From: Halomonas alkalicola
GTDB lineage: Bacteria; Pseudomonadota; Gammaproteobacteria; Pseudomonadales; Halomonadaceae
Direction: 5' to 3'
Length of the DNA stretch: 64,000 nucleotides
NCBI RefSeq assembly: GCF_030704205.1
Contig: NZ_CP131913.1
Location: forward strand, 2,728,001 to 2,792,000
Part shown: positions 21,985 through 26,122 of the stretch, in pieces
Position numbering within the stretch: position 1 is the first letter of the stretch
Layout of the letters: each line of letters begins with the position of its first letter
Made by a program: the position numbers and the translations under genes
Notes under the pieces: model-generated
What the model was told of the DNA's origin: nothing
Database searches by the model: none
Seen by the model: only the letters and a program-made list of their open reading frames with translations

Positions 21985-22136
21985 TTCTTGGTGTAGATGT
22001 TGATATTTTTTAGTCTTTTGATTTTTTGCTTTTGGAGGGGGAGATGGCGTCGTTTAATATTAGTCTTAGTAGCGTTGCAGCCAAAATTGCACAATGTATT
22101 GAGTCTCAAGAGATTGGTGGTAAGCCTATTGATATT

Positions 22137-23688
22137 GTAACTATTCAGCACCGGTTGGCTGAGTCGGGGCTTCTTGCTGCATGAAGGCTGGCACCTCCCC
22201 CGCAAACAGTTGCTCCAGTGCGGTATGCGCCGCTACCCCTTGCTTGACGGCGGTCGAGAGAAAGCTACGCATGCGGCAGAAGATCTCAGCACCCTCCCAG
22301 GAGCGGAAACAGCCCGAGATTTTCTGCTGGACCTTGGTCATTCGCAGATCGCGCTCCCCCTGGTTGTTGGTGAAGGGAGCGGCAGGGTCGTCGAGGAAGC
22401 GCAACACGTCGTCCTCGTACGCCTGGAGGCGTTCCAGGAGGTTGCGCGACTTGGTGCGCTTGGCCCGGCCTCGCGTTCCAGGTGGCGGTTTCACCGGCGG
22501 GGGGCACTCGGCGTCCCCTTTCGCCAGGCAATCTCGATAGCGCTGCCGCCAGGCTCGGGTCTCATCGGCCGAGAGGCAGCCGTCGGCCACCTCCACGGCG
22601 CGATGCATCTCCAACAACAGGTCATGCAAGGCCTTGGCCCATGCCTGGCCATCGTTCTCCCAGGCCGCTGTCAGCTCCCGAAGGTGGTGCGCATTACAGA
22701 GCGCGTGCCGGCAATCCGGATAGCGGTAGTAGGGCTTCCAGTGATCATGCACCAGCACCAGCACGCCACGCACGAAGGGCAATACGCCGATGGCGTCCAT
22801 CGCTTCCTGGCCGCGCTTGGGGTGCGGGGCCAACCAGGTCAGGGCCTCGTTGGAGGCGCTGTGTAGCCAGTAGCGTTTGCCACCGACCTGCATTCCGGTT
22901 TCATCGGCATGGACGGTGGCTGCTTCACGTAGCGCCGGGATCACCCACTCGGCGAACGCCTCGGCCCGCTGGTAGGCCTCCTGGTTGAAGGCGAACAGGG
23001 TGCCGGTGCTCAGCGACAGGCCGCACTGCGAGGTGAGCAACTCGCGGATACGCGCATAGGGCAACAGCTGATACTGGGAGAGATAGACGACATGCGCCTT
23101 GAGGCGAGGGCCATACTGGATGGGGCGAGTCACGCCCTCGGGGAATGGCGCCACGTAGCGTTGCCCCTGATCATCTTCGAGGACCTCAGCCTGATATTCG
23201 GTGACCACGGCCTGGATTACGATGTCCTGCACTTGGCGCGTTTCGACGCCGACCGGGCGGTAAGAACGCCCCTTGGGGAGTTGCCGACGATCGACACGGA
23301 GCTTGACCACCTCGTCGGGGTCCGTCACCGGCGCCAACGTCTTACCCTCATGCCCTGGCTGTCCGCCGGGGCGCCGCTCGCCTTTGGCGCGCGAGCGGCG
23401 CTGGCGATTGGGATCCTGGGACGGTGGCTTGCTGCTGTTGCGGCTACTGGTGGCCAGGCGATCGGCCATGAGCTTGACCAGCAGCATCAGCACATCGATG
23501 GCGGCACGCAGCGACGGCGAGACCGTCTGGTCTTCCTTGAGCTGCTGCCGGACCCGCTCCAGGGCCTCGTCGACGTTGATATCGCTGATGGTCATATCAC
23601 CGCATAGGTGTGCCGAATGATGCTGTGCACTATGCCAGAAAAATCAGCTGGTTGGCGATACCCCATCCGCAGCCACCTGAATAGTTAC
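22137..23688 (-). mobile_element. IS66-family insertion sequence carrying only tnpC, 1552 bp
   Basis: The termini are GTAACTATTCAG and its inverted copy CTGAATAGTTAC (12 bp exact). The element is flanked by a perfect 8-bp duplication TTGATATT (22129-22136 and 23689-23696), the length expected for IS66. It has one transposase gene and no tnpA/tnpB, as in the ISBst12-like subgroup. High GC relative to the AT-rich host gene it interrupts. The exact duplication indicates a fairly recent, single-step insertion. Confidence 0.95.
22141..23595 (-). CDS. tnpC: IS66-family transposase TnpC (DDE)
   Basis: A 484-residue transposase. Order: N-terminal leucine-zipper-like helix, a basic linker with NSSKPPSQDPNRQRRSR, zinc-finger region, and the DDE core with VHADETGMQV (first D), LVHDHWKPYYRY (second D, followed by CNAHHLREL) and FTNNQGERDLRMTKVQQKIS (E). 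The gene fills nearly the whole element and appears intact; the stop codon is four bases inside the left end. Confidence 0.95.
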   Translation of the reverse strand: MTISDINVDEALERVRQQLKEDQTVSPSLRAAIDVLMLLVKLMADRLATSSRNSSKPPSQDPNRQRRSRAKGERRPGGQPGHEGKTLAPVTDPDEVVKLRVDRRQLPKGRSYRPVGVETRQVQDIVIQAVVTEYQAEVLEDDQGQRYVAPFPEGVTRPIQYGPRLKAHVVYLSQYQLLPYARIRELLTSQCGLSLSTGTLFAFNQEAYQRAEAFAEWVIPALREAATVHADETGMQVGGKRYWLHSASNEALTWLAPHPKRGQEAMDAIGVLPFVRGVLVLVHDHWKPYYRYPDCRHALCNAHHLRELTAAWENDGQAWAKALHDLLLEMHRAVEVADGCLSADETRAWRQRYRDCLAKGDAECPPPVKPPPGTRGRAKRTKSRNLLERLQAYEDDVLRFLDDPAAPFTNNQGERDLRMTKVQQKISGCFRSWEGAEIFCRMRSFLSTAVKQGVAAHTALEQLFAGEVPAFMQQEAPTQPTGAE

Positions 23689-23696
23689 TTGATATT

Positions 23697-25634
23697 TTAG
23701 TTTCTGGCAATTCTTTTTGTCCGAAGGAGGGATGGCTTTGGGACTATAAGGCTCAGTTTGACGGCAGTGAGATATCTCTTGCTAAGCGTGTTAGGCAGGT
23801 AATTAGTTTCCATAATTCATTTGGTGGGTATATAGTCTATGGCGTGCAGGAGTTAGTTAAGGATCAGGTTTTTTCTCCTGTTGATATTGATCTTGATGCT
23901 TTCAATATATCAGCTTTGAGGGATAAAATAAAACATTATTCAGGTGTCGAAATTGACTGCACTTTCTCAAGGGTTGAGAAGTTTTTTGATGGCAAGTGTT
24001 ACGTTTTTGGACTTTTGCTAGTCCCCAAGCGTGCTGTAGATGGTGAACTGGTAAAGATCGTTAGGGATGGGCCGCTTAAAAGGGTGGGCGGAACTGCAAG
24101 AATATTTTCTTCTGAAGATGTGTTGATGAGGTCTCTTGATCAATGCATGAGAGCTGAAAAGCCAGAGGATTATAAATTCTTATTTTCTCCCAGGAAGTTT
24201 TCAGATAGGGCTGGGGGGCAAAGCGGGAACCATGCTAAATTCCTGGATCATAACCTCCCGGATAAGCAGCTTATCTGTCCAAAGTTTGTTGGTAGGAAAG
24301 AAGAAATAACTTTGCTCTGGCAGTGGATGGCGGAGCCGTTTGACTACACAAGAGTTCTTGCTGGTGATGGGGGGAAGGGAAAAACATCTATCGCTTACCA
24401 GTTTTGCGAAGAGTTTTCAAGAAGTGCCCCGCAAGGCTTTGAAAAAATCATATGGTTGACTGCAAAGGAAAAGCAGTTTTCTGGCATTGCTAACGAATAC
24501 TACGATTTAAACGGGGCGGACTTCTCTAACGCTCAAGACTTTCTATTATCTCTTGCAGAACATTGTGCGCTGCTGGAAAGTGATGTGGATGGACTTTCAG
24601 TTAATGGGCTTAAATCACTAATAAAGCAGTCGATAGCTTTCTTTCCTAGTTTGGTGGTGGTCGATAATATCGATGCGCTTGATGACGACGATCAAAAAAA
24701 GATAGTCGACTGCTGTCGCCATTTGGCAAGTGATAAAGTAAGATATCTAATAACAACTAGGAAAAAGTTCTCTTACTCTAGCGAGTCATGTATTGATGTT
24801 TCCGGGATGAATGCTGACGAACATAAGGAGTACGTCCTCTCCTTGGTTGAAAAATATCGAATAAAAGATTTTAAGCAAGGCTTTATAAATAAAATACATG
24901 AAGTGAGTGATGGTTCTCCATTGCTAACCCAGTCAATTATTAGGCTCCACAGGTCTGGGCTTTCTCTTGATAAAGCAATTTCTGAATGGAGAGGAGAGCT
25001 AGGGGAGGACGCGAGGAATGCCGCTGTGCGTAGAGAGATTGATTCTCTTACTCCTGAGGCAAAGCGAGCTCTGTTAGCTGTTACCTATTTTGGAAGTTGC
25101 TCTTTTACAGAGCTGAGGCAGGTGTTGGCTGTTCCCAAAATTAAGCTTATGGACGTGGTTGAAGAGCTAAAGGCTCTTTTCTTGGTTGATGAGCCAAGGA
25201 TAGTTCAAGGGGAGGATCGTTTTTCTGTTTCATCAACTACATCCTTGTTGGTTGGTGAGATAAGAAAGGAAATGGCTGGCGACCACCAAGCACTTTTGAA
25301 CGAAGTTAGGCGGCACCGTTCCTCAGTTAAAGAGGGTAAGCGGGGGAATAGGCATAGGGTTGGAATGGCTATTAGTCAGGCGAGAGCCCTAAAGTTGGAA
25401 GGGGATTTTTCTCGAGCATTTGAAACTATCGACAATGAGCTTTCTCGTCAGAAGCAGCATCCAGATTTGATCCTTACAAAAGGGTGGCTTTATCTTGAGT
25501 CTGTGCCGCCAAATTATGAAGAGGCAAGGAAGTGCTTCAGGATTTCTCACTCGAAAGGCGGCAAGGCACAAAAGAGTTTTTATATGACTGTTGGTATAGG
25601 GCCGAAGAAGGAAAGGTGTATCCTCAAGGAATGA
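23697..25634 (+). pseudogene. main fragment of the NLR-like gene (AlbA_2 remainder, NTPase, helical region)
   Basis: Open from the IS66 junction to the TGA at 25632-25634. The first internal ATG that could restart translation is at about 23844, which would drop the most conserved AlbA_2 residues. The NTPase segment spans roughly the middle third; SPLLTQSIIRLH and ELRQVLAVPKIKLMDVVEEL look like the winged-helix part that follows NB-ARC domains. The last 20 residues before the stop are out-of-frame sequence produced by the downstream frameshift. Confidence 0.8.
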
Positions 25635-26122
25635 TAGATGTTTCTCGTCATGCGCTTGTGAGCGGGGTTTGCGACGATAAAGTTTGGAATTATAGATTGG
25701 CAAGGGGTTTGATTTACAAGTCTGCGTACAGAAAGGGGGAAGATAAGGTTAAAGACCTTTTTGAGGCAAGCGAAAAGCTTTCATCTGACCTGAAGAGCCT
25801 TGATCAGCTGACTAGAAAAGTTAGGCTTGATGAGATATTCGAGTTAAATAACTATATATGCAAGTTGGTTTCTGTAAAGAAGGGTGAGAGGTTCTCTTCT
25901 TTCGATATTGTTTCAAGGTTGATAGAAAGGGGGGATGTAAGGGTTGTTCTCTTTGATTTTTGTCACAGACTCCTTGCTGATGAAAGGGGGGGTGTGATCA
26001 AGCCGAATCAAGTGTCTGCATACAATGCTCGCGTGGAGAAGCTGAACCATCTTATAAGAGATAGGACTAAGGGTAGGAGTTCTTCCGGAATGATGGGGAA
26101 TTATTTCTTGGATGTTATTTAA
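25574..26122 (+). pseudogene. C-terminal fragment of the NLR-like gene in shifted frame
   Basis: From about 25574 the frame reading KEFLYDCWYRAEEGKVYPQG continues the host protein for some 180 residues to a TAA at 26122 and ends GMMGNYFLDVI. It is helical, AT-rich and has no start of its own with a good ribosome site. The simplest explanation is a one-base deletion in the aaggcacaaaag stretch of the parent gene. Confidence 0.75.

What the first reader, a model, noticed from the sequence alone, without database searches (positions are those of the whole stretch)
22044..26122. NLR-like Schlafen/STAND gene inactivated by a precise IS66 insertion; intact ancestor can be reconstructed
Removing 22137-23688 and one copy of the 8-bp TTGATATT duplication rejoins the frame and restores an AlbA_2-type domain (LWDYKAQF...GGYIVYGV) directly on a STAND NTPase with TPR-like tail. 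That combination (effector-like AlbA_2 on an NLR-like core) is typical of bacterial immune NTPases; I cannot name a described system with this exact order. Strong AT bias shows it was acquired.
Basis: partly seen in the sequence, partly recalled or inferred. Interest (0 to 1): 0.78.

Follow-up and report, generated by a model that had tools for sequence, protein, structure and literature searches.

The report
Broken Schlafen–NLR immune gene beside recBCD
A bacterium carries the remains of a one-gene immune protein that joins a domain like the RNA-cutting part of human Schlafen and SAMD9 antiviral proteins to an NLR-type switch; a jumping gene broke this copy, intact copies exist in other bacteria, and the place where it sits looks like a swap-in site for anti-phage genes.

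Summary
An IS66-family element (22137-23688; perfect 12-nt ends, 8-bp target duplication) splits an AT-rich gene after codon 31, and the frame changes again near 25560-25600. The pieces, searched apart, align in order to intact ~840-aa proteins (Halomonas, 77% and 74%; 187 homologues among 8000 scored candidates). The modelled intact orthologue has an AlbA_2/Schlafen domain, a STAND core nearest CED-4, Apaf-1 and plant NLRs, and a TPR-like tail. The domain folded alone (a weak model) matches Schlafen and SAMD9 nuclease structures best. Three acidic residues fall on Schlafen13's catalytic triad and are kept in 109 of 114 homologues. Context supports immunity: the recD 3' flank in this genus is AT-rich in 13 of 20 genomes against 0 of 20 control stretches, and occupants include Gabija, Avs5, AbiU and reverse-transcriptase genes; a same-species genome has a type I restriction system there; one relative sits in the P2-prophage defence hotspot. 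Likeliest mechanism, inferred: an infection-sensing STAND switch releases a Schlafen-type RNase, probably on tRNA. It works like SAMD9 but is not a SAMD9-family member (no SIR2-like or OB domain, canonical Walker A). This copy is most likely dead.

The parts
22044..22136 (+). First 31 codons of the broken gene (helical N-terminus of the AlbA_2 region)
   Evidence: aligns to residues 1-31 of intact P0005
22129..22136 (.). Left copy of the 8-bp target duplication
22137..23688 (-). IS66-family insertion element, 1552 bp, perfect 12-nt inverted ends
   Evidence: 12 matches in the genome, 11 full length
22141..23595 (-). IS66-family transposase, 484 aa
23689..23696 (.). Right copy of the 8-bp target duplication
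23697..24240 (+). AlbA_2/Schlafen-type domain; codons matching the acidic triad E42, D47, E83 of P0005 at 23727, 23742 and 23850, and K49 at 23748
   Evidence: domain limits from the model of P0005
23844..25634 (+). Largest ORF left on this strand after the IS (596 aa, GTG start); begins after the codons for E42, D47 and K49
24240..25305 (+). STAND (NB-ARC-like) NTPase core; Walker A GDGGKGKTS at 24363-24389
   Evidence: limits approximate, carried over from P0005 residues 211-566
25350..26122 (+). Helical TPR-like tail; reading frame changes between about 25559 and 25600
21628..21951 (+). DUF427 gene, left neighbour of the island
   Evidence: PF04248, 3.2e-28; the same-species match of the left flank ends at about 21919
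26232..26513 (-). Remnant of a GGDEF gene, right edge of the island
   Evidence: matches residues 297-397 of a 403-aa GGDEF protein at this place in G029, 63% identity
26578..28890 (-). recD, its 3' end facing the island
   Evidence: the name recD rests on recall and on its place beside recB/recC-like ORFs

Best explanation
This is a dead copy of a single-gene, horizontally moving anti-phage protein of NLR type. In intact relatives the C-terminal TPR-like tail would sense infection, the NB-ARC-like STAND core would bind ATP and oligomerise as CED-4, Apaf-1 and plant NLRs do, and the N-terminal AlbA_2 domain would then act as a Schlafen/SAMD9-like endoribonuclease, most likely on tRNA, stopping translation in the infected cell. 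Shown here: domain order, the folds (as models), conservation of the acidic triad and of Walker A, patchy distribution, defence-hotspot location, the IS insertion and the second lesion. Inferred: RNase activity, tRNA as substrate, sensing by the tail, oligomerisation, an abortive outcome. In the window, the largest ORF left starts after three of the active-site codons and ends at the second lesion, so this copy should be inactive.
Against: No activity was tested. The domain-only model is weak (mean pLDDT 61.9, five sequences), and its Foldseek E-values run from 4.9e-4 to 0.03 for Schlafens. The triad is E-D-E, not E-E-D, and E83 is replaced by N, M or Q in 4 of 114. Sequence-profile searches never listed SAMD9. 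AlbA_2 domains are also described as DNA/RNA binders (PMC5445408). PADLOC has no model that covers the family.
Confidence: 0.65

Rival explanations
1. Immune NLR-like protein in which AlbA_2 is not the effector but a nucleic-acid-binding sensor or scaffold; the output is assembly itself, sequestration, or, in one clade, the C-terminal TIR domain.
For: Four listed homologues carry a C-terminal TIR domain, a clade with support 1.0. AlbA_2 is described as DNA/RNA-binding (PMC5445408).
Against: The acidic triad is conserved in 109 of 114 proteins, and all four TIR-bearing ones keep it; a plain binding domain would not need it.
Confidence: 0.18
2. A regulator of MalT type: a STAND switch that controls transcription through a DNA-binding AlbA_2 domain, with no direct immune role.
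For: STAND regulators exist (a maltose-system structure is among the matches, 8bob); databases name members 'AlbA family DNA-binding' or 'helix-turn-helix domain-containing'.
Against: Patchy distribution (4 of 275 genomes in the family), defence-hotspot location, a P2-prophage hotspot member, conserved acidic triad. No conserved neighbour that it could regulate was seen in the few loci read.
Confidence: 0.1
3. The 596-aa ORF left in the window is still a working truncated protein, for example a sensor or dominant-negative form.
For: The ORF is long and open.
Against: It lacks the codons for E42, D47 and K49 and, through the second lesion, the end of the tail. IS copies nearly identical to this one elsewhere in the genome suggest a recent insertion, enough to explain the open frame.
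Confidence: 0.04

Closest known systems
Animal SAMD9/SAMD9L (Mekhedov et al. 2017, PMC5445408, parts 1 and 2 of 4 read; PMC12331169, abstract start and passages)
   Different: No SIR2-like segment, no OB fold, and a canonical Walker A lysine in 114 of 114, where SAMD9 has GGT/S (PMC5445408).
Vertebrate Schlafens (SLFN5, 8/13, 11, 12, 14)
   Same: AlbA_2 fold and the catalytic acidic positions of SLFN13; profile match 2e-4 to 5yd0.
   Different: Here one AlbA_2 domain is fused to a STAND core; the triad reads E-D-E.
Bacterial STAND/NLR immune proteins (bNACHT, Avs, CARD-NLR; seen in listings and passages only)
   Same: Single large protein with STAND core and repeat tail; Avs5 and a NACHT-SNaCT5 gene occur near recD in other species of the genus.
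   Different: No PADLOC model matches P0001, P0003 or P0005; the effector is AlbA_2, and the core is NB-ARC-like (29 of 51 members) rather than NACHT (2 of 51).
CbCash (PDB 9ylu; depositor's name, no paper found)
   Same: Profile match E 0.0019, with E-x4-D-x-K as in this family.
   Different: 297-aa chain, too short for a STAND core; its system is not known to me.
[quoted passage not shown] not read, only seen as a citation in PMC12839542; not held)
   Same: By title, bacterial Schlafen-type proteins as anti-phage systems.
   Different: Whether it covers STAND-linked proteins could not be checked.

Membership tests
SAMD9 family (core as in PMC5445408) | N-terminal AlbA_2 domain | tested here: met
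SAMD9 family (core as in PMC5445408) | SIR2-like domain between AlbA_2 and the NTPase | tested here: not met
   In the model of P0005 about 10 low-confidence residues lie between the domain (to about 203) and the core (from about 211)
SAMD9 family (core as in PMC5445408) | STAND-like P-loop with GGT/S in place of GKT/S | tested here: not met
   G-K-G-K invariant in 114 of 114, followed by T (112) or S (2)
SAMD9 family (core as in PMC5445408) | TPR array | tested here: met
SAMD9 family (core as in PMC5445408) | C-terminal OB fold | tested here: not met
   No strand after residue 540 in the model of P0005
Schlafen/AlbA_2 nuclease domain | AlbA_2 fold | tested here: met
   weak domain-only model
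Schlafen/AlbA_2 nuclease domain | Three acidic active-site residues | tested here: met
   Aligned positions, spacing, 109 of 114
Schlafen/AlbA_2 nuclease domain | RNA cleavage | not testable with these tools
   Needs biochemistry
STAND/NLR (NB-ARC type) | P-loop, Walker B aspartates, TTR and GSPL (GxP) motifs, CED-4/Apaf-1-like fold | tested here: met
   motif names recalled
Known PADLOC defence systems (bNACHT, Avs and others) | Match to a PADLOC model | tested here: inconclusive
   None for P0001, P0003 or P0005; of 51 members 3 match PDC-S50 (best 6.6e-7), 2 PDC-S66 (best 4e-12), and 1-2 match each of four TIR-related models
IS66 family | IS66 transposase, terminal inverted repeats, 8-bp target duplication | tested here: met
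   (8 bp as the family's usual length is recalled)

The most novel reading that the evidence does not exclude
AlbA_2-STAND-TPR proteins are an uncatalogued class of bacterial immune NLRs whose effector is a Schlafen-type tRNA nuclease: a minimal counterpart of the SAMD9 layout with an intact P-loop, including a TIR-armed two-effector branch; and the recD 3' flank in Halomonas is a chromosomal hotspot that loads such genes next to RecBCD.
Probability: 0.4. Interest if true: 0.75.

Novelty: new variant of a known kind. Interest (0 to 1): 0.52.

Why it matters
If the mechanism holds, the layout behind human SAMD9 and SAMD9L (a tRNA-cutting Schlafen-type domain run by an NLR-like switch) has a smaller bacterial counterpart that keeps its P-loop and can be studied with phages; the activation of SAMD9-type nucleases would become directly testable. 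The second gain is a chromosomal site, downstream of recBCD in this genus, that can be mined for anti-phage genes. The window's own copy matters only as an example of decay.

Tried and rejected
SAMD9 kinship by sequence: profile searches of the PDB with the whole family and with the domain list Schlafens, never SAMD9; SAMD9 appears only in the VIA-align comparison, not among the 50 Foldseek rows shown. In the whole-protein model the NTPase fills the structure list, so the domain was folded alone. A phmmer search with the 215-aa domain of L038 gave nothing below E 0.12.

Partner gene: the 297-aa gene beside the G042 member and the 319-aa gene beside the G109 member looked alike to me but show no similarity (E 1.5). 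Integration repeats: no shared word of 8 or more nt, direct or inverted, between the two island edges compared (21851-22043 and 26120-26260). Mobility: tblastn of P0053 found 2 partial plasmid records and no phage record; tblastn of the L038 member found no phage record, and its DNA no near match in E. coli genomes; IMG/VR gave 2 loci. The class sample held only the window's own genome (1 of 369) and the order sample 3 of 390, so statistics on neighbours over many family members were not possible.

Literature: ten searches listed no paper whose title or shown abstract describes this architecture in bacteria outside the SAMD9 family; most listed papers were not opened and the library holds no bioRxiv collection, so this is weak evidence of absence. 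The bacterial Schlafen preprint could not be read.

Corrections: one search gave 14 of 20 AT-rich flanks because N in the G053 stretch counted as AT; one search corrects it to 13 of 20, and the total from 23 to 22 of 36. In one search the line 'STAND part' was out of frame and is not used; dS could not be estimated (saturated).
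Full report
The observation. The plus strand from 22044 carries an AT-rich gene (GC about 0.43 against 0.65-0.73 around it) that is cut after 31 codons by a 1552-bp element, 22137-23688. The element has perfect 12-nt inverted ends and an 8-bp target duplication, and one IS66-type transposase gene on the minus strand (2e-89). The genome has 12 matches to it, 11 of them full length at 99-100% (this one included) and one partial, so the element is or was recently active here. A second lesion, a frame change between about 25559 and 25600, separates the 645-aa piece from the last 187 aa.

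What the gene was. The pieces were searched apart. P0001 (23697-25634) finds 187 homologues at E<=0.001 among the 8000 candidates that were scored (a cap, so a lower bound); 120 are listed, the first being the window's own truncated ORF, followed by intact proteins of 837 aa (Halomonas sp. TRM85114, 77%) and 831 aa (H. daqingensis, 74%). In the alignment the 31-aa, 645-aa and 187-aa pieces cover the intact proteins in order (a few residues at the piece ends are misplaced). Against the orthologue in L003 the gene shows dN 0.137 with synonymous sites saturated, i.e. purifying selection before its loss.

Location. In the window the gene lies between a DUF427 gene and recD, whose 3' end faces it; a GGDEF remnant (26232-26513) next to recD matches residues 297-397 of a 403-aa GGDEF protein found at this place in G029. 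In H. jincaotanensis (L003) the intact orthologue also lies beside recD. The same-species genome G030 has no homologue; beside its DUF427 gene lies HsdR, followed by HsdS, a C5 DNA methylase and other genes, and its recD is preceded by HsdM on another contig. Seven more relatives were inspected, two of them chosen because they carry a family member elsewhere. G037 has an SMC/LmuB-like ATPase, G032 an OLD-like ATPase-TOPRIM gene and G042 an AAA_15/21 ATPase within 2 kb of recD. G028 has a NACHT-SNaCT5 gene, but about 8 kb away, beside a second DUF427-like gene. G029 has an ATPase with only sub-threshold Pfam matches, G109 short AT-rich genes, and G044 no AT-rich insert between recD and DUF427.

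Hotspot test. recD was found in 81 of 81 genus genomes. Taking the 48 most similar in order and leaving out 7 already inspected or own and one at a contig edge, 40 flanks were asked for; 36 were usable and 4 ended at a contig edge. A 1.5-kb stretch with GC under 0.50 lies in the first 8 kb in 22 of 36 flanks; in the 20 of these genomes with room for a control stretch 50 kb away on the other side it is 13 of 20 flanks against 0 of 20 controls (Fisher 1.3e-5). By a cruder measure, mean GC of the first 3.85 kb is under 0.55 in 17 of 36. Of 31 AT-rich ORFs of 300 aa or more, 18 were scanned. Fifteen, in 13 genomes, match defence models: two Gabija pairs, Avs5, two AbiU/AIPR, PD-Lambda-4, PDC-S46, a Ppl-like protein, an OLD/GajA-like protein, a PADLOC 'Helicase', Shedu SduA (Pfam), an RT_V reverse transcriptase and Drt3b (this one behind a GGDEF gene). 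Two match only generic AAA families and one nothing, these three in Pfam alone. PADLOC includes broad ATPase models, so single calls are soft. So 14 of 36 flanks show no AT-rich stretch, and some hold other host genes instead. One literature search for such a site listed none in Halomonas; a Stenotrophomonas paper describes an island that holds RecBCD itself with Wadjet genes (PMC11680222, passages).

Other members. One relative (L038, IMG/VR) lies in a P2-like prophage between the replication-initiation gene and the portal gene, the site where Rousset et al. found a defence hotspot (PMC9122126, passages). Another (G934) lies beside a gene matching PADLOC Orf5 (1.8e-100) and mREase_IV (3e-87). 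The family is patchy: 4 of 275 genomes of the window's family, 1 of 369 in the class sample, 3 of 390 in the order sample; none in 50,697 phage records by two tblastn queries and 2 partial plasmid matches. Four of the 119 listed homologues carry a C-terminal TIR domain and keep the triad, forming one clade (support 1.0).

Mechanism. The simplest reading is a single-protein NLR: the repeat tail senses, the NB-ARC core switches and assembles, and the Schlafen-type domain cuts RNA. Schlafen13 cuts tRNA; SAMD9 depletes tRNA-Phe through its N-terminal domain (PMC12331169, start of abstract, passages); and a BREX survey states that Schlafen-linked systems can act as anti-phage modules through tRNA cleavage (PMC12839542, passages, citing the preprint that I could not read). 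Shown: anatomy, conservation and context. Inferred: catalysis, substrate, trigger and outcome.

Comparison. It works like SAMD9 and like bacterial STAND immune proteins, but by the published definition it is not a SAMD9-family member: no SIR2-like segment, no OB fold, and a canonical Walker A (PMC5445408, parts 1 and 2 of 4). PADLOC 2.0.0 has no model that covers it; of 51 members 3 match PDC-S50 and 2 PDC-S66, two candidate models of unstated function. I file it as a new variant of a known kind: an NLR-like immune STAND protein with a Schlafen-type effector. The copy in the window is a pseudogene, which limits the interest of the window itself; the family and the hotspot carry the value.

Noticed in passing
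window 21920-26577, and recD 3' flanks L025-L034, L045-L084: The 3' flank of recD in this genus is a variable site: AT-rich in 22 of 36 further genomes, with Gabija, Avs5, AbiU, PD-Lambda-4, DRT/RT, OLD-like and other defence-type genes.
   Followed up: partly
P0069, P0077, P0084, P0089: A clade of homologues of 1009-1032 aa adds a TIR domain at the C-terminus while keeping the AlbA_2 triad.
   Followed up: partly
G000:C1:2214404-2214700 (L001), outside the window: A second AlbA_2 protein in the same genome (PF04326, 1.2e-14, open frame of 589 aa).
   Followed up: no
window 26232-26513: Remnant of a GGDEF gene, apparently truncated when the island came or changed.
   Followed up: partly
L035:11181-13709 (G042) and L036:9554-12091 (G109): Two members of the family in the genus lie upstream of genes for a large HTH-AAA-TPR protein of about 1050-1090 aa, perhaps a second insertion site; in G109 an HNH endonuclease gene is also near.
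   Followed up: partly
window 55533-55643: TPP riboswitch (Rfam RF00059, 59.6 bits).
   Followed up: no
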